The notes beneath the pieces were generated by a model. The model was not told where the DNA came from and made no database searches. It saw only the letters and a list, made by a program, of their open reading frames with translations. Source: Limnochorda pilosa (GTDB taxonomy: Bacteria; Bacillota; Limnochordia; Limnochordales; Limnochordaceae). From it: DNA of 64,000 nucleotides. How positions within the stretch are numbered: the first letter of the stretch is position 1; every line of letters begins with the position of its first letter. Below are positions 12,539-20,570 of this stretch, piece after piece. Where the stretch lies: positions 2,046,001-2,110,000 of the forward strand of contig NZ_AP014924.1 of assembly GCF_001544015.1 (NCBI RefSeq), read 5' to 3'. Position numbers and translations under genes: made by a program.

Positions 12539-12722
12539 CCGCCCACGAGCGCGTGGCCGGCCCTCGCCCGGAAGACGTCGACGCCCATCCAGGCGCCTCC
12601 TCGTTTCCACCCCGAGCTCCTCGCGTGACGGCTCCGCCAGACGGTGCACCTTTGGGTGGCGCTCGGTCGAACGCGGTCCCGCCGGGGAGGATTCGGTCCC
12701 AGGGAAACGAAGAGAGGTGTGG

Positions 12723-12740
12723 TTGTGATCGCGAGCACAA
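12723..12740. promoter_or_regulatory. CRP/FNR-like palindrome upstream of fixABCX
   Basis: The sequence TTGTGATCGCGAGCACAA is a near-perfect dyad matching the CRP/FNR-family pattern TGTGA-N6-TCACA at all but one position. It lies 56 bases before the fixA start in a 257-base intergenic stretch that otherwise shows no gene. Regulation of an electron-transfer operon by such a protein is plausible but inferred. Confidence 0.4.
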
Positions 12741-12795
12741 TATCCCACTCCAGTCGACGCCGCTGCAGCCCCGGTCCGGAAAGGATGGTCGCCCC

Positions 12796-13764
12796 TTGCA
12801 CGTGGTCGTCTGCATCAAGCAGGTGCCGGACAGCCGGGAGATCCGCATCGACCCCGTCAGCAACACCCTCATTCGGGAGGGCGTGCCGGCCATCGTCAAC
12901 ATCTTCGACCTCCACGGGGTCGAGGAGGCCGTGCGCATCAAGGAACGGATCGCGTGCACCCGCGTCACCGTGCTCACCATGGGCCCGAAGTCGGCCCGCT
13001 CCGCCCTGCAGGAGTGCATCTCGCTGGGGGCGGACGAGGGCGTTCTGGTGTCGGACCGGGCGTTCGCCGGGGCCGACACCCTGGCCACATCCTACGTCCT
13101 GGCCGAGGCGATCCGCATGGCCGCCCAGGTGTGGGGCCCCGTGGACCTGGTGATCTGCGGCAAGCAGACCCTCGATGGGGACACAGGCCAGGTGGGGCCC
13201 GGCATCGCCGCCCGGCTGGACCTGGAGCAGCTCACCTACGTGGAGCGCATCCGGTCCGTGGACCCTGACGCGGGGCGCATCACGGTCGAGCGCCACCTGG
13301 AGGACGGCGTGGAGGTGGTGGAAACCTCCCTGCCCGCGCTGGTGACGGTGGTGGAGGGAATCAACGAGGTCCGCCGGGCCAGCATGCCCGGCATGCTGCG
13401 GGCGGTTCGGTACGAGCCCCTGGTCTGGACCGTGGCCGACTTCCCCGAGATCGACCGCTCGCGCCTCGGGCTGAAAGGATCGCCCACCGTGGTGGGGAAG
13501 GCCTGGGTCCCCGAGCCCATCACCCGCTCCGGCGAGGCGCTGGGCGGACCCGATGGGGATGGCAACGGAAACGACTCAGCGGCCCAGGTCGCCGCGGCGC
13601 AGCTCTTCGACCGCCTCCTGGCCACGGACCTGCCCGCCCGGCTGGGGTGGACCGGGGTCGGTCCGATGGAGGGGAGCACCGGAAGCGGCACCCGCGACCC
13701 CTCCCCACATGATCACGCCGTCGAAGAAGGCAACGGCGTCGCAGCGGACGGGAGGGGGCGTTGA
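12796..13764 (+). CDS. fixA: Electron transfer flavoprotein beta subunit (FixA)
   Basis: ETF beta subunit, first gene of fixABCX. I chose TTG 12796, giving the canonical start MHVVVCIKQVPDS; no ATG gives a better fit. AMP/FAD-binding ETF segments are visible, including DLVICGKQTLDGDTGQVGP and ETSLPALVTVVEGINEVRRAS, the ETF-beta signature. At 322 residues it is about 60 longer than usual because of a Gly/Asp-rich linker and a C-terminal tail after residue 236. FixA/FixB carry the bifurcating flavin, oxidise NADH and send electrons to ferredoxin/flavodoxin and, through FixC, to quinone. This role is established for the family. Confidence 0.93.
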   Translation: MHVVVCIKQVPDSREIRIDPVSNTLIREGVPAIVNIFDLHGVEEAVRIKERIACTRVTVLTMGPKSARSALQECISLGADEGVLVSDRAFAGADTLATSYVLAEAIRMAAQVWGPVDLVICGKQTLDGDTGQVGPGIAARLDLEQLTYVERIRSVDPDAGRITVERHLEDGVEVVETSLPALVTVVEGINEVRRASMPGMLRAVRYEPLVWTVADFPEIDRSRLGLKGSPTVVGKAWVPEPITRSGEALGGPDGDGNGNDSAAQVAAAQLFDRLLATDLPARLGWTGVGPMEGSTGSGTRDPSPHDHAVEEGNGVAADGRGR

Positions 13765-13766
13765 CG

Positions 13767-14930
13767 ATGGCACGTGTGCCGAAGCGGGCTTCAGAGCCCG
13801 TCCCGCCGGAGACCCCAGCCGAGGCCCAGGTCCTTTCGGAGCACGAGGGGATCCTGGTCATCGTGGAGCAGCGGCTGGGCCAGGCCCGGAGCGTGAGCTG
13901 GCAGCTCCTGGGCCAGGGACGGCGTCTGGCCGACAAGCTGGGCACCAAGCTCATGGCGCTGGTCCTGGGATACCGGGTTGAGCCGGTGGCCCGGGAGGCG
14001 ATCGCGTACGGCGCGGACGTGGCCTACCTCTGGGACGACCCCGTTCTCGAGCGTTACCGCACGCGGCCCTACAGCGAGGCGGCCGTCCACGTGATCCGAG
14101 CCGAAAAACCCGAGATCGTCCTGGTGGGCGCCACCTACACCGGCCGCGATCTGGCGGGGGCCGTCGCCACGCGGCTCGAGACGGGCCTCACCGCCGACTG
14201 CACCCTCCTCGACGTGGAGCCGCCCCCCACCCGCCTGCTGCAGGCCAGCCGCCCGGCCTTCAGCGAGAAGCTGATGGCCACCATCCTCTGCAAGAAGCGG
14301 CGCCCCCAGATGGCCAGCGCCCGGCCCGGTGTCTTCGAGGCGCTCCCCCCGGACCCGAACCGTTCGGGACGCGTCGTGCGGGTGGGATCGACCCTGCGCG
14401 AGGAGGACGTGGCAGCCCGGGTCCTGGACTTCATCCAGGACCCCGACCGGGTGAACCTGGAGGACGCCACCGTGATCGTCGCCGGCGGCCGGGGGGTGGG
14501 CGGCCCGCAAGGGTTCCAGCTCCTTCGCCAGCTGGCCCAGGTGCTGGGTGGCGAGGTGGGCGCCTCGCGGCCTGCGGTGGAGGCGGGCTGGATCGACCGG
14601 GCCCATCAGGTGGGGCAGACGGGCCAGACCGTCCGCCCCAAGCTCTACATCGCCTGCGGCATCAGCGGTGCGGTGCAGCACCTGGTGGGCATGGAGGGCA
14701 GTCAGGTGATCGTGGCCGTGAACCGGGAACCCGACGCCCCCATCTTCCGCGTGGCGGACTACCGCATCGTGGGGGACCTCCACCAGGTGGTGCCCGCCCT
14801 GATCGCCGAGGCGCGCCGGCGCCTGGGGCCGCTGGATGAAGGCGACGCGCCGGGGAACCAGAGCGCCGTCCGCACCTCCGGCGCATCGCCCGTGCACGGC
14901 ACCCGAGAGGGGGTCCAGGATCGTGGCTGA
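13767..14930 (+). CDS. fixB: Electron transfer flavoprotein alpha subunit (FixB)
   Basis: ETF alpha subunit, 387 residues. ATG 13767 follows GGGAGGGGGC by seven bases and lies two bases after the fixA stop. The C-terminal FAD domain is canonical: AGGRGVGG near residue 240, then QVGQTGQTVRPKLYIACGISGAVQH (flavin-contacting tract) and NREPDAPIFRVADYRIVGDL. An N-terminal extension of about 30 residues precedes the ETF fold. It pairs with FixA and docks to FixC. The end overlaps fixC by eight bases. Confidence 0.94.
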   Translation: MARVPKRASEPVPPETPAEAQVLSEHEGILVIVEQRLGQARSVSWQLLGQGRRLADKLGTKLMALVLGYRVEPVAREAIAYGADVAYLWDDPVLERYRTRPYSEAAVHVIRAEKPEIVLVGATYTGRDLAGAVATRLETGLTADCTLLDVEPPPTRLLQASRPAFSEKLMATILCKKRRPQMASARPGVFEALPPDPNRSGRVVRVGSTLREEDVAARVLDFIQDPDRVNLEDATVIVAGGRGVGGPQGFQLLRQLAQVLGGEVGASRPAVEAGWIDRAHQVGQTGQTVRPKLYIACGISGAVQHLVGMEGSQVIVAVNREPDAPIFRVADYRIVGDLHQVVPALIAEARRRLGPLDEGDAPGNQSAVRTSGASPVHGTREGVQDRG

Positions 14931-16242
14931 CGAGCGGTTCGATGCGGTGGTGGTCGGGGCCGGGCCGGCGGGTACTGCAGCGGCCTACACCATGGCCAAG
15001 GCCGGCCTCTCGGTGGTGCTGCTGGACCGGGGCGAGTTCCCCGGCGCCAAGAACATGTTCGGGGGGATCATCTACCGCCAGCAGCTGGAGGAGCTGATCC
15101 CCGGCTGCACCCAGGAGCCCGGCTTCCCGGTGGAGCGCCACATCACCGAGCAGCGCTACTGGCTCCTGGGGCCTGAGTCGGTGGTCTCCATCGGCCACAA
15201 GCACGAGCGCTTCAACAGGTCGCCCCATAACGCCTGGAGCGCCTTCCGGGTCAAGTTCGACCCATGGCTCGCCGGCAAGGCGGAGGAGGCCGGCGCGCTG
15301 CCCATCTACCAGACCGCGGCCACCGGTCTGATCCGCGACGGATCCGGTCGGGTGGTGGGGGTCCACACGGACCGGCCCGACGGTGACCTGCACGCCGGCG
15401 TGGTCGTCATCGCCGACGGGGTCAACGGCCTCCTGGCGGAGCAGATCGGCGTCCACCGCCCCTGGCGCCCCGACGAGGTGAGCCTGGCGGTGAAGGAAGT
15501 GATCGCCCTTCCCCGGGAGAAGATCGAGGACCGCTTCAACCTCGAGGGGGACGAGGGAACCACCATCGAGTTCCTGGGGGCGACCTCGCAGGGCATGACC
15601 GGCCTCGGCTTCCTGTACACCAACCGGGAGAGCTTCTCCCTCGGCATCGGTGTCATGGTCAGCGACCTGCAGCGCACGGGCGTGAAGCCCTACGAGTTGC
15701 TGGAATCGGTGAAGCGGCACCCGATGATCCGGCGGCTCATCGCCGGAGGGGAGACCAAGGAGTACTCGGCCCACCTCATCCCCGAGGGGGCGTGGTGTTC
15801 GGTCCCCCCGCTCTCGGGCGACGGTTGGGTGATCTGCGGCGACGCCGCCCAGATGGTGGACTTCGTCCACCGGGAGGGCACCAACCTGGCCATGGCCTCG
15901 GGGCACCTGGCGGGTGAGGCCGTGGTGGAGGCGAAGCAGCGGGGCGACTTCAGCGCCGCCTCCCTGGCCGGCTACGACCGCAGGGTGCACGCCTCCTTCA
16001 TCCGGGCCGACCTGAAGAAGATCCAGCGGATGCCCGCGTTCCTCCACGGCCAGGATCCGGCCCGCCTCTTCGACGGTCTGATCGGTGCGATGAACGAGGC
16101 GGCGTATCGCTACTTCCTGGTGGACGGGCTCTCCAAGGCCCAGGCCCAGCGCCAGATGCTCCGGAAGCTGATGCAGGCGGCCGGCGGGCCTTCGGGCGCG
16201 CTGAGGCTCGCCTGGCGAGGATGGAGGGCGATGAACGCATGA
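14923..16242 (+). CDS. fixC: FAD-dependent oxidoreductase FixC (ETF-quinone oxidoreductase-like)
   Basis: A 439-residue flavoprotein of the ETF-QO/FixC family. GTG 14923 starts within the fixB end. The dinucleotide-binding motif VVVGAGPAGTAAAYTMAKAG occupies residues 8-27; a second FAD motif, GWVICGDAAQMVD, is near 302. A hydrophobic membrane-associating segment typical of ETF-QO is weak here. With FixX it accepts the exergonic branch of electrons and reduces the quinone pool. It overlaps fixX by four bases. Confidence 0.94.
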   Translation: MADERFDAVVVGAGPAGTAAAYTMAKAGLSVVLLDRGEFPGAKNMFGGIIYRQQLEELIPGCTQEPGFPVERHITEQRYWLLGPESVVSIGHKHERFNRSPHNAWSAFRVKFDPWLAGKAEEAGALPIYQTAATGLIRDGSGRVVGVHTDRPDGDLHAGVVVIADGVNGLLAEQIGVHRPWRPDEVSLAVKEVIALPREKIEDRFNLEGDEGTTIEFLGATSQGMTGLGFLYTNRESFSLGIGVMVSDLQRTGVKPYELLESVKRHPMIRRLIAGGETKEYSAHLIPEGAWCSVPPLSGDGWVICGDAAQMVDFVHREGTNLAMASGHLAGEAVVEAKQRGDFSAASLAGYDRRVHASFIRADLKKIQRMPAFLHGQDPARLFDGLIGAMNEAAYRYFLVDGLSKAQAQRQMLRKLMQAAGGPSGALRLAWRGWRAMNA

Positions 16243-16589
16243 GCTCCCGCACGCGCACGGCCGCGGCACCGGCGGCGGCATCACGGACCCCTGAGGCGGC
16301 CCCGGCGCCTCCGGTGGCCCTGGAAGAGAAGCTCTTCACCATCCGCTACCGGGCTGACCGGGCCTCCCACCTGGCCATCCGCGATCACGCGGTCTGCGCC
16401 GCGTGTTCCCGCCCATGCGAGAGCGTCTGCCCCGCCCGGGTGTGGGAGTGGAAGGCCGAGGAGGGCCGCATGCAGGTGGCCTTCGAGAACTGCCTCGAGT
16501 GCGGCACCTGCCGCATCGCCTGCCGCCAGGGAAACATCGACTGGCGCTACCCCACGGGCGGTGCGGGGATCGCGTACCGGTACGGGTGA
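16239..16589 (+). CDS. fixX: Ferredoxin-like protein FixX
   Basis: A 116-residue iron-sulfur protein that completes the FixABCX complex. After an Ala/Pro-rich N-terminal tail of about 28 residues come two cysteine clusters, CAACSRPCESVCP and CLECGTCRIAC, arranged as in FixX, which carries one [4Fe-4S] cluster next to ETF-QO. The ATG at 16239 overlaps the fixC stop; an upstream in-frame ATG at 16221 is an alternative. Electrons pass from FixC flavin to FixX and quinone. Confidence 0.92.
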   Translation: MSSRTRTAAAPAAASRTPEAAPAPPVALEEKLFTIRYRADRASHLAIRDHAVCAACSRPCESVCPARVWEWKAEEGRMQVAFENCLECGTCRIACRQGNIDWRYPTGGAGIAYRYG

Positions 16590-16603: not shown

Positions 16604-17540
16604 ATCCCGAATTCGCGCCAGCTCCCGGCTGCTTCCTCGCCGGCGTTTCCCTCGGCGGCCCCTTCCGGCCAAGAGTGGACCTGCAGAGGCGTGTCTTCCT
16701 GGTCGGCCCCAACGCTTCCGGTAAGTCGAACTTCCTCACGCCCTGCGCTTCCTGCACGATGTGGTTTCCGTGGTCCGCGAACTGGACCGATCTGTTGGGC
16801 GGACGAATGACCCGTACGGGGGCGACTTCCTGGAACAGGTGGCCAGGACCGCCAAGAACACCAGGCAGGCCCGACTGAGCCGGATTCAACGTGCGCTTCG
16901 CATCGCCGTGCCACAACTGAGCGAACTGCAGCTGTCGCAGGATGCTCGAGGCGCCTGGCACCTTCGGGGCCGGTACGAGCATTGGCGACCGCAAGGTGCG
17001 TGGCAGACCGAAAAGCATCTGTCCGACGGTACTCTCCGACTCCTCGGTCTACTCTGGGCTGCACTCGACGGCCAGGGCCCTCTTCTGCTGGAGGAGCCGG
17101 AGCTTTCCCTTCACCCTGAAGTCGTCCGGCACATTCCGCAGATGTTCGCGAGAATGCAGCGCCGCACAGGCCGACAGGTCTTCATCAGCACCCATTCGCC
17201 GGATTTGCTTCGCGATGACGGGATCGGTTTCGACGAGGTCTTGCTGCTGGTCCCCGCTTCCTCCGTGTCCGGCTTGGCCAGGTGCCGACATCACCGGACC
17301 ACGAGGCCGATGCCAAGCGCTCGTTGATTGACCCGGCCCGTCGTTCCACCAGCAGCGCCGGACGCGACGACATGGTCCCGCGGCCAGGGAGCGGTCGCGC
17401 AATCGGTCCCGCGTGCACGTCCCGACTCATAGAGTATGCTTCGTCCCACTGGCGCATCGATGTGGCACAGGAAGCCTCGGAGAGCCTACGTCGAGCGGTT
17501 AGGGCTCTTCAAGCACAGGTTGAGCGGGCTAGCTAGGGCC
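16604..17540 (+). pseudogene. AAA/ABC-type ATPase (AAA_21-like) broken by frameshifts
   Basis: Pieces of one ATPase are spread over different frames. Frame one carries the Walker A region VFLVGPNASGKSNFL ending near 16738. Losing a single base there shifts the continuation (ALRFLHDVVSVVREL) into the frame open until 17327, which contains the Walker B LLLEEPELSLHPEV and the STHSPDLL motif. Near 17275-17285 the reading shifts again (VPTSPDHEADAKRSL in the next frame), and the 3' end has no coherent frame. A DUF4276/RloB-like partner often follows such ATPases; a short tail ending GLFKHRLSGLARAEA near 17490-17545 may be its remnant. GC content is lower than its neighbours, consistent with acquired defence-type DNA. 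A sequencing error could explain one shift but hardly both. Confidence 0.7.
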
Positions 17541-17595: not shown

Positions 17596-18954
17596 CTATG
17601 AACCATCATCGGCCGGACCGTCGGCCAGCCTCTGGATCAGGGCCGCGAGCGTGGCCGACGTAACCTTCCGCTCCTCCAGCGCCCTGAGGGCCGTCTCCAG
17701 CACCTGTGGATCCCGGATCCAACCGCGGGCCTGGGACTCCTGTTTCCCCACATACTCGCACATGCGGCGAAGCTGGTCCGCATAGGCGGCCAGGTTCCTG
17801 GGAGCGAGGCCAGGCAGCTGCGGCGAGCCGGTCCCCGCCTCTTGCGCCAGGGCCGCCCTCAACCGCTGTGTCATCTCCTGGGCGCGGGCCAGCCACTCCT
17901 CCACCTTCAGCCCCGTGCCCTGCAGGAACATGCGCCGGACGATGGGCCGCTGGAAAGCGGTCAGCTCGGCGTACTCGCGGACGTTCTCCTCAATGATCGC
18001 CTCCATTCGCTCGTTCAGGGCCAGGGCCTCATGAAGAAGGTCGCCCAGGTCAGCCGGTGGGCGGGGTACGCGGGCTGAAGCGTGCGATGTGGGCTCCACC
18101 GTGCCTGTACGCACCTCCGCGGCAACAGCCTCGGGGGATGCGAGGCGAGCGTGGGGTTTCCCGTCTGAATCCAGGCCCAGGGCAGCCAGGCCGGCGACGT
18201 AGTCCGCCTCCTGGCCGTGAAACTCAGCTGCATGCAGAAGGGTCCCCACCAGGCCCGTGGCGCAGAGCTCGGCCGGGATCACCTGCCCCCCGCTCTGCCG
18301 GATGAAGCCGTCGAGGCTGAGCCCGTACAGAGGCGCCAGGTGGCGCATGGCGTCCATCAGTCCCGGCGTCTCCACCATGCCGGGAGCAAAGCCGTAGACG
18401 GCGACCCCACACCCCTCCCCAATCTCCTGTGCCAGGGAGCTCGCCAGCGATCGCAACCCGGTCTTGGAGGCCAGGTACGGGGCCAGGTACGGCATGCCTT
18501 CAGCCGACTCCATGAAGACCACCACGCCCTCGCCCCGCTCGAGCATGCCCGGCAGGAAAGCCTTCACGCCCAGGAAGGCACCCCGCAGGTTCACGGCGAA
18601 GACCCGGTCCCACTCCTCCAGCCGGTGCTCCAAAACCGGCTTGGTAGTGACGAAGGCTGCGTTGTTCACCAGGACGTCCGCTCGGCCGAAAGCGCGGAGT
18701 GCCTGGTCGCGCAGGTGCTCCACGCTCTCGGAGTCCGACACGTCCGTGCGAACGAAGAGGGCCTCGCCGCCGCCGGAGCGGATGAGGCGCTCGACTTCCA
18801 GGCCTTCGTCGCTCAGCTCGGCCAGCACCGTGGCGGCACCCAGCCGGGCCAGGATCCGGGCCGTCTCCCTCCCGATCCCCCTCCCTGCCCCGGTGACGAT
18901 GGCCACCTTGCCCTGCAGCACCGTCCGATCGACGGAAGCCCGCTCGATGATCAT
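17596..18954 (-). CDS. SDR-family oxidoreductase with helical C-terminal extension
   Basis: A short-chain dehydrogenase, 452 residues against about 250 for the family. The N-terminal domain has the cofactor motif TGAGRGIG (21-28), NNAA (97-100) and a plausible catalytic triad S150, Y160 and K164 (YLASK). After residue 260 comes a charged, Ala/Leu/Glu-rich region predicted mostly helical and not resembling a known domain to me. The start overlaps the stop of alpha-glucan phosphorylase by four bases (ATGA), indicating translational coupling. The substrate is unknown; coupling suggests a link with glycogen or maltodextrin metabolism, which is inference. Confidence 0.85.
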   Translation of the reverse strand: MIIERASVDRTVLQGKVAIVTGAGRGIGRETARILARLGAATVLAELSDEGLEVERLIRSGGGEALFVRTDVSDSESVEHLRDQALRAFGRADVLVNNAAFVTTKPVLEHRLEEWDRVFAVNLRGAFLGVKAFLPGMLERGEGVVVFMESAEGMPYLAPYLASKTGLRSLASSLAQEIGEGCGVAVYGFAPGMVETPGLMDAMRHLAPLYGLSLDGFIRQSGGQVIPAELCATGLVGTLLHAAEFHGQEADYVAGLAALGLDSDGKPHARLASPEAVAAEVRTGTVEPTSHASARVPRPPADLGDLLHEALALNERMEAIIEENVREYAELTAFQRPIVRRMFLQGTGLKVEEWLARAQEMTQRLRAALAQEAGTGSPQLPGLAPRNLAAYADQLRRMCEYVGKQESQARGWIRDPQVLETALRALEERKVTSATLAALIQRLADGPADDGS

Positions 18955-20570
18955 ACGGACCCCGCTTCAGGTGCGTAGAGCCTGTCCACGTACGCCCTCA
19001 TCATGGTAGCGGCGGAGAACGCGTCCACGGTGGATCGGATGCTCTCCCGCATCATGCGGATCCAGCGTGGGCGGTCCTGGTAGTACGTGGGCACGACTTC
19101 CCGCAGCAGCACTCGGTAGAGCGCCTCCAGGTCGTGGGCGTCGGGGTCGGGGCCCTCGTAGCCGTCACCGAGCTGCCACCCGTTCTCCCCGTGACGGCAG
19201 GCCTCGGGCCACCAGCCGTCGAGGACGCTCAGGTTGAGCACGCCGTTCATGGCCGCCTTCATCCCCGACGTGCCGCACGCCTCCAGCGGCCGGATGGGGT
19301 TGTTCAGCCAGAGATCGGTGCCCCGGGTGAGGGCCCGGCCCACGGCCATGTCGTAGTCGGGCACGAAGACGACGCTCTCGGGGAAGCGGCGGCTCGCGTC
19401 GACCAGGCGGGCGACGATCTCCTTCCCCGTGTCGTCCAGGGGGTGCCCCTTGCCGGCGAAGACGATCTGGATACGGCCGTCCCGCAGGTAGGGCTCGATC
19501 ACCTGGGGCCGACGGAAGATCAGGTCGCTCCGCTTGTAGGGGGCGGCCCGCCGGGCGAAGCCGATCAGGAGCTTGTCGGCTGCCAGGCGAATCCCCGTGC
19601 GTTCGTGGATGAAGGCGAGGGTTTCTGCCTTCAGCGACTGGTGGGCCTGCCACAGCGCCTCGTCGGAGCCGCTGGCCGCAGAGACCATGCGCCGGTCCTG
19701 CCAGGTGGGCACGTGGACGCCGTTGGTGATGCCGGTGATCTCGGGGGCATCGGTCACCTGGGCCCACATGCGGCGGGCGGTGCGGGCGTGGAGCTGGGAG
19801 ACGCCGTTCGCCGCCCGGGCCAGCCGCAGGCCCGCCACGGTCATGTTGAAGGGGTTCCCCCCGATCTGCTCCATCTGCTCGCGGGAAAGGCCGTTGAAGG
19901 CGCCCAAGTACTCCAGCAGCTCCAGCCGGTGGGACTCGTTCCCCGCCTCCACGGGTGTGTGGGTGGTGAAGACGATCTGGCCACGGGTGGCCTGCCAGGC
20001 CTCGTCGAAGGTGCTGCCCGCCTCCATCTTCTCCCGGATCAACTCGATGCCCGCCAGCACCGCGTGCCCCTCGTTGAAGTGGTAGACGTCGGGCTCGAAG
20101 CCCATGGCCCGCAGGAGCCGCACGCCGCCGATCCCTAAGATCATCTCCTGGGCCACTCGCTCCTCACCGAACCACCCGTAGAGCTGCCCCGTGATCCACC
20201 GGTCCTCGTTCTCAGGGAGGTTGGTGTCCAGGAGGTAGAGGGGCGCGTTGCCGAAGGCGTCCAGGAGCCACGCTCGGGCCTTCACCTCTCGCCTCCGGAT
20301 GGGCACGGTCACGGTGAGCCCCGTGTCCTGCAGCCGCCGGTACATGTGGTCGTTCAGCGGGTAGGCGTCCACTGGGCGGCCGCCCTCGATGATCTGCCGG
20401 GTGTATCCTTGGCGCCAGAGGAGCCCCAGCCCCACCAGAGGCAGGCCGGCGTCGCCGGCAGCCTTCAGGTGGTCGCCTGCCAGGATCCCGAGCCCGCCGG
20501 CGTAGAGCGGGAAGTCCTCGTGCAGGCCGTACTCCATGCAGAAGTAGGCAACCTTGGGCCGTGCGTCCAT
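18951..20570 (-). CDS. glgP: Alpha-glucan phosphorylase (GlgP/MalP family, short form)
   Basis: A PLP-dependent phosphorylase of 539 residues that releases glucose 1-phosphate from glycogen or maltodextrin. It belongs to the short alpha-glucan phosphorylase type, far smaller than the roughly 800-residue muscle/E. coli type. Family segments include VAYFCMEYGLHEDFPLYAGGLG at the N-terminus, FNEGHAVL, TTHTPVEAGNE, GITNGVHVPTW, GFARRAAPYKR and EACGTSGMKAAMNG, the PLP-lysine region. I chose ATG 20570 (AGGGGTG upstream) over the GTG at 20597. It is translationally coupled to the SDR downstream. Confidence 0.92.
   Translation of the reverse strand: MDARPKVAYFCMEYGLHEDFPLYAGGLGILAGDHLKAAGDAGLPLVGLGLLWRQGYTRQIIEGGRPVDAYPLNDHMYRRLQDTGLTVTVPIRRREVKARAWLLDAFGNAPLYLLDTNLPENEDRWITGQLYGWFGEERVAQEMILGIGGVRLLRAMGFEPDVYHFNEGHAVLAGIELIREKMEAGSTFDEAWQATRGQIVFTTHTPVEAGNESHRLELLEYLGAFNGLSREQMEQIGGNPFNMTVAGLRLARAANGVSQLHARTARRMWAQVTDAPEITGITNGVHVPTWQDRRMVSAASGSDEALWQAHQSLKAETLAFIHERTGIRLAADKLLIGFARRAAPYKRSDLIFRRPQVIEPYLRDGRIQIVFAGKGHPLDDTGKEIVARLVDASRRFPESVVFVPDYDMAVGRALTRGTDLWLNNPIRPLEACGTSGMKAAMNGVLNLSVLDGWWPEACRHGENGWQLGDGYEGPDPDAHDLEALYRVLLREVVPTYYQDRPRWIRMMRESIRSTVDAFSAATMMRAYVDRLYAPEAGSV

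What the first reader, a model, noticed from the sequence alone, without database searches (positions are those of the whole stretch)
17596..20570. SDR with a long helical C-terminal extension translationally coupled to glycogen phosphorylase
The SDR is 452 residues with an intact S150-Y160-K164 site and about 190 extra, charged, mostly helical residues that I cannot assign. It overlaps the short-form GlgP gene by ATGA. The coupling of an alpha-glucan phosphorylase with such an enzyme is not a pairing I recognise.
Basis: partly seen in the sequence, partly recalled or inferred. Interest (0 to 1): 0.5.

Follow-up and report, generated by a model that had tools for sequence, protein, structure and literature searches.

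The report
Helix-tailed dehydrogenase; glycogen pairing not conserved
A common type of dehydrogenase here carries an extra helical domain that no family library names; the domain recurs, fused or alone, in scattered related bacteria, but the neighbouring glycogen phosphorylase gene is not its usual companion.

Summary
Window 17596-18954 (-) encodes a 452-residue short-chain dehydrogenase/reductase (SDR) with TGxxxGxG and N122-S150-Y160-K164. It overlaps a 539-residue short alpha-glucan phosphorylase (18951-20570, -) by ATGA. About 190 residues follow the SDR core: a linker and a ~145-residue domain, predicted all-helical at modest confidence.

The extension is real. A profile found it in ten full-length extended SDRs from 9 of 398 phylum genomes, two of them in this genome. 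The domain also occurs as stand-alone ORFs in five genomes and decayed in two. Extended SDRs and two short relatives form one clade (99/98) against seven classical SDRs. Pfam, NCBIfam and PDB searches gave no convincing match.

The pairing was not found elsewhere. None of 22 other GlgP places held the extended SDR in the flank examined (mostly 1.5-6 kb). None of eight other genomes with an extended SDR had GlgP in the 5-20 kb fetched around it. Four of five such genomes tested whole had no GlgP match.

Best reading: an NAD(H)-dependent SDR with a portable helical accessory domain, beside GlgP only in this lineage. Substrate and domain function are inferred. A new variant of a known kind, of modest interest.

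The parts
17596..18954 (-). SDR with C-terminal helical extension, 452 aa, ATG start overlapping the GlgP stop
   Evidence: ORF and translation; Pfam adh_short 3.3e-45
18169..18921 (-). SDR core, residues 12-262
   Evidence: Pfam match 16-201; alignment A1; blocks of residues 11-190 modelled with mean pLDDT 59-97
18871..18894 (-). cofactor motif TGAGRGIG, residues 21-28
   Evidence: translation; T21, G22, G26, G28 invariant in 7 extended SDRs
18463..18507 (-). catalytic S150, Y160, K164 (N122 lies at 18589-18591)
   Evidence: Y160 and K164 invariant in 7, S150 is T in one of 7
18055..18168 (-). linker, residues 263-300, variable in length and sequence
   Evidence: gapped region in alignment A1
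17620..18054 (-). helical C-terminal domain, residues 301-445
   Evidence: alignment A2, profile hits, predicted helices
18951..20570 (-). short-form alpha-glucan phosphorylase (GT35, TIGR02094), 539 aa; lysine 438 aligns with the lysine of the SxMK motif of known phosphorylases
   Evidence: TIGR02094 632.5 bits against cut-off 191.7; alignment to solved phosphorylases
18951..18954 (-). ATGA overlap: GlgP stop and SDR start
   Evidence: sequence

Best explanation
The gene encodes an SDR with a classical-type catalytic core, most likely NAD(H)-dependent, that interconverts an alcohol and a carbonyl on an unknown small substrate. Its last ~145 residues are a separate, portable helical domain joined by a variable linker. 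I think the domain works as an accessory: it holds subunits together or docks the enzyme to a partner, rather than taking part in the chemistry. The GlgP overlap is a lineage-specific arrangement that may couple expression but does not reveal the enzyme's role. Shown: intact SDR motifs, a homologous extension in a distinct SDR clade, stand-alone and extension-less versions, no GlgP partner elsewhere in what was examined. Inferred: cofactor, reaction, accessory role, coupling.
For: Catalytic N-S-Y-K and glycine motif intact. The residue ending the second strand (E46) is acidic in 7 of 7 aligned extended SDRs, which by general SDR knowledge favours NAD(H). The extension has 8 invariant columns across 7 sequences. 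The domain is found fused in 9 of 398 genomes and alone in 5 of 398. Two SDRs of the same clade lack it, one of them ending about where it would begin. Extended SDRs plus these two form a clade, 99/98, 100% of 200 bootstrap trees. GlgP: 0 of 22 other GlgP places with the extended SDR; 0 of 8 other genomes with an extended SDR had GlgP in the fetched flanks; 4 of 5 genomes tested whole had no match.
Against: No partner, oligomer or substrate was shown. Neighbours of the fused and stand-alone genes are heterogeneous, which gives no functional clue. The domain model has only pLDDT 68 and is low in the full-length model. GlgP flanks were short (1.5 kb for most, one only 25 bases downstream), 13 further GlgP places listed were not looked at, and genomes were sampled from one phylum.
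Confidence: 0.6

Rival explanations
1. The SDR and GlgP form a functional pair in this lineage: the SDR oxidises or reduces a sugar or derivative made from glucose 1-phosphate, and the overlap keeps the two proteins in balance.
For: ATGA overlap on one strand; no strong ribosome-binding site visible before the SDR start (by eye); remote similarity of the core to glucose 1-dehydrogenase models (NF005559, 144 bits against a cut-off of 215).
Against: Pairing not found at other GlgP places or other extended-SDR loci; four of five other genomes with the SDR have no such GlgP match; 4-nt overlaps are common in this window. The model score is below its cut-off and many other SDR models score similarly.
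Confidence: 0.12
2. The helical domain is a sensor: it binds a small ligand and switches the SDR on or off. Stand-alone copies do the same for other proteins.
For: Portable domain, fused and alone; invariant W and D across 12 copies; a GyrI-like ligand-binding protein is encoded near one fused and one stand-alone copy.
Against: No match to a known ligand-binding family at a curated cut-off; the best fold matches are generic helical bundles; the GyrI-like neighbour is seen at only two of 15 loci compared.
Confidence: 0.2
3. The extension is a loosely constrained tail with no function of its own.
For: Domain identity (24-35%) is lower than whole-protein identity (37-46%); it is absent from two SDRs of the clade and the gene is decayed in two genomes.
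Against: Invariant columns across distant copies and intact stand-alone ORFs indicate selection.
Confidence: 0.08

Closest known systems
Classical SDR superfamily (Pfam PF00106 adh_short; FabG, 3-hydroxybutyrate dehydrogenase and glucose 1-dehydrogenase-like enzymes)
   Same: Glycine motif, NNA, N-S-Y-K residues, PG motif; core matches above Pfam cut-offs and many solved SDRs
   Different: About 190 residues longer; no VDGG-type end of the core (by eye); separate clade from seven classical SDRs compared
Alpha-glucan phosphorylase, short form (GT35, NCBIfam TIGR02094)
   Same: 632.5 bits against a cut-off of 191.7; lysine motif aligned to solved enzymes
   Different: 539 residues, lacking most of the N-terminal DUF3417 region (only its last 16 positions match weakly); an ordinary family member, present in 29 of 41 relatives searched
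Mycolic acid reductase Rv2509, an SDR described with distinct structural motifs and listed by my search for SDRs with a C-terminal extension (PMC7065075; search listing and start of abstract seen only)
   Same: An SDR reported with features outside the classical layout
   Different: No sequence comparison was made here; no relation claimed

Membership tests
Classical-type SDR | TGxxxGxG cofactor motif | tested here: met
   T21-G28 TGAGRGIG, invariant T/G positions in 7
Classical-type SDR | Catalytic N, S, Y, K | tested here: met
   N122, S150, Y160, K164
Classical-type SDR | Pfam adh_short above curated cut-off | tested here: met
   154.4 bits against 26.6
Classical-type SDR | Single-domain protein of about 250 residues | tested here: not met
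   452 aa with extra domain; so filed as an extended variant, not a plain classical SDR
Classical-type SDR | NAD(H)- or NADP(H)-dependent oxidoreductase activity | not testable with these tools
   acidic E46 only suggests NAD(H)
Any named NCBIfam SDR subfamily | Score above curated cut-off | tested here: not met
   all 25 models shown, of 213 matched, are below their cut-offs
Short-form alpha-glucan phosphorylase TIGR02094 | Score above curated cut-off | tested here: met
   632.5 against 191.7 bits
Short-form alpha-glucan phosphorylase TIGR02094 | Cofactor lysine motif conserved | tested here: met
   SGMK, K438, aligned with SNMK of solved phosphorylases; that this lysine holds the cofactor is recalled
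Known helical-bundle domain families | Sequence or fold match clearly above background | tested here: inconclusive
   Pfam/NCBIfam none at cut-off; Foldseek best E 0.63; VIA-align best Z 9.2, rmsd 3.7 over 94 residues, within the range the tool gives for unrelated helical bundles

The most novel reading that the evidence does not exclude
The extension is the first noticed member of an undescribed, portable ~145-residue helical domain family that moves between SDR-fused and stand-alone forms across deep-branching Bacillota and regulates or recruits its SDR through a common partner or ligand.
Probability: 0.35. Interest if true: 0.45.

Novelty: new variant of a known kind. Interest (0 to 1): 0.28.

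Why it matters
A well-sampled enzyme superfamily holds a clade with an unannotated domain that also exists alone. If the domain binds a partner or ligand, it would explain a set of hypothetical proteins in poorly studied bacteria and add a regulatory layout to SDRs. The GlgP pairing itself does not appear to matter.

Tried and rejected
GlgP pairing as a conserved unit: rejected. An SDR does lie upstream of GlgP in two congeneric genomes (L051/L030 and L031), but in L051 it ends in an ordinary SDR C-terminus without the extension and a stretch of about 900 bases separates it from GlgP; not the same arrangement.

Extension in the class: the single C-terminal sequence found nothing convincing outside this genome in 72 genomes (one hit at E 0.009 with a stop inside, not followed). 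The more sensitive profile over 398 phylum genomes gave 25 genomes at E <= 0.001: 9 with full extended SDRs, 5 with stand-alone ORFs, 2 decayed, and 9 weak hits (E 6e-7 to 4e-4) that I do not count. Of those nine, two were read and look like unrelated helical proteins (L096, L097; by eye), and seven were not inspected. Only the best few candidates per genome were scored, so counts are lower bounds; two of the seven profile rows come from this genome and the seven rows match themselves by construction.

Plasmids and phages: no match to the C-terminal region. Viral contigs: two SDR hits matching the core only. Genome contigs: four SDR hits matching the core only.

Recurring neighbours: compared at 15 loci; besides same-genus synteny, other SDRs and products of overlapping wrong-frame ORFs, only ABC-transporter ATPases, a GyrI-like protein at two loci, a weak resemblance of a TraB-family protein at two loci, an ORF pair shared by L088 and L094 and one shared by L025 and L026 (the last two not followed). 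No functional lead.

Promoter and terminator scans gave nothing. Literature: six searches; listings and abstract starts seen, and passages of PMC11456536. None of those listings names this domain or pairing; I did not read further, so this is no claim that nothing is in print.

A first tree used a gapped copy of the window protein by mistake; it was rebuilt with the clean sequence and fewer classical rows (7 in place of 11), with the same grouping.

Full report
What is there. On the minus strand, 17596-18954 encodes a 452-residue SDR and 18951-20570 a 539-residue alpha-glucan phosphorylase; stop and start share ATGA. The window lies in a single-contig genome of 3,817,036 bases. Its size, G+C and kin suggest Limnochorda or a close relative; that is recall, not a test.

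The SDR core. Pfam adh_short covers residues 16-201 (154.4 bits, cut-off 26.6). TGAGRGIG (21-28), N122, S150, Y160 and K164 are present. The residue at the end of the second strand, E46, is acidic in 7 of 7 aligned extended SDRs, which in general SDR knowledge points to NAD(H). No NCBIfam SDR model reaches its cut-off among the 25 shown of 213 matched.

The extension. It has no Pfam or NCBIfam match at a curated cut-off, and no PDB sequence match better than E 0.05 for its profile or 3.4 for the single sequence. A search of 398 phylum genomes with the whole protein gave five other genomes with long SDRs, plus a second copy in this genome. Aligned over their length, the other six are 37-46% identical to the window protein; in a pairwise comparison the two copies in this genome share 35% over 450 columns. 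The domain alone is 24-35% identical, with eight invariant columns.

Wider distribution. A profile of the domain reached 25 of 398 genomes at E <= 0.001. Reading the ORFs, nine genomes have ten full extended SDRs (this genome two; G094, G151, G157, G182, G215, G237, G312, G407 one each). Five have a stand-alone ORF of 141-171 residues (G103, G114, G176, G422, G436). Two have decayed copies (G274, G384). Nine weak hits are not counted. One genome (G237) also has a fragment of the domain at a second place. hhalign confirms one stand-alone copy strongly (99.6%) and a distant one less so (92.8%). Twelve fused and stand-alone copies share an invariant W and D. In the class of G312, 3 of 12 genomes had it; among G237 and its relatives, 3 of 61 at E <= 1e-8. 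The family is sparse.

Origin. In a tree of SDR cores, ten extended and two short SDRs form one clade against seven classical SDRs (99/98). The two short members, L013 (273 aa, ending about where the extension would begin) and a second SDR in G312, fall inside the clade, which suggests loss of the domain or more than one gain; ten of 20 inner branches of the first tree and seven of 16 of the second are unresolved.

Structure. The domain alone, from one sequence, is modelled as six helices with mean pLDDT 68 and pTM 0.58. Foldseek finds nothing below E 0.63. VIA-align's best is Z 9.2 (rmsd 3.7, 94 residues) to a syntaxin helical bundle, which the tool says may be only a common arrangement for helical bundles. 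In the full-length model, built with four classical SDRs, the core to about residue 190 is mostly well modelled and the rest is below 60. Helical is therefore likely; the fold is not settled.

GlgP. It is an ordinary TIGR02094 enzyme (632.5 bits, cut-off 191.7) with the lysine motif aligned. 29 of 41 genomes (own and relatives) have one, and this genome has two. In 22 other GlgP places, one of them the second copy in this genome, no extended SDR was found in the flank held (mostly 1.5 kb each side, 6 kb for some, 25 bases downstream in one); 13 further places listed had no locus and were not looked at. No GlgP was found in the fetched stretches around extended SDRs of the eight other genomes (about 5-20 kb), nor around the second copy in this genome. 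Of the five other genomes tested whole, four had no match at E <= 1e-20, and G237 has two on a different contig; three genomes with extended SDRs (G094, G151, G157) were tested only in their flanks. So the pair is seen only here in what was examined.

Coupling. Four-base overlaps occur at 4 of 27 same-strand neighbour pairs called in the window, so the overlap alone says little. Co-expression is plausible and unproven.

Verdict. The extended SDR is a real, recurring, unannotated two-domain SDR variant. The pairing with GlgP is local. The likeliest mechanism is an NAD(H)-dependent alcohol/carbonyl interconversion by the core, with the helical domain as an accessory for assembly or partner docking; both of these are inference.

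Noticed in passing
window 12700-16589 (+): A run of four ORFs that reads as an electron-transfer flavoprotein cluster of FixABCX type (beta and alpha subunits, FixC-like flavoprotein, FixX-like ferredoxin), assigned by eye from the translations.
   Followed up: no
window 16761-17327 (+): A 188-residue ORF matching only the C-terminal part of AAA_21 (profile positions 191-303 of 304), next to the FixX-like ORF; looks like a remnant of a larger ATPase gene.
   Followed up: partly
L021 13440-14240 (-): A second SDR of the same clade about 4.5 kb from the extended one in G312, without the extension and with R in place of the catalytic K (by eye); possibly inactive.
   Followed up: partly
L056 8016-14493 (-): Two short GlgP genes within 5 kb of each other in G237 (68% and 65% identical to the window's), with an ORF that looks like a flavin-dependent reductase between them (by eye).
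   Followed up: no
L092 5757-6360 and L093 1372-2101: Decayed relatives of the extended SDR with a missing or frame-broken core but a recognisable C-terminal domain.
   Followed up: partly
L086 6213-7343 and L094 4307-6037: ORFs beside two stand-alone domain genes resemble each other (30% over 266 residues); the L094 one is a TraB/PrgY/gumN protein, the other has no Pfam match.
   Followed up: partly
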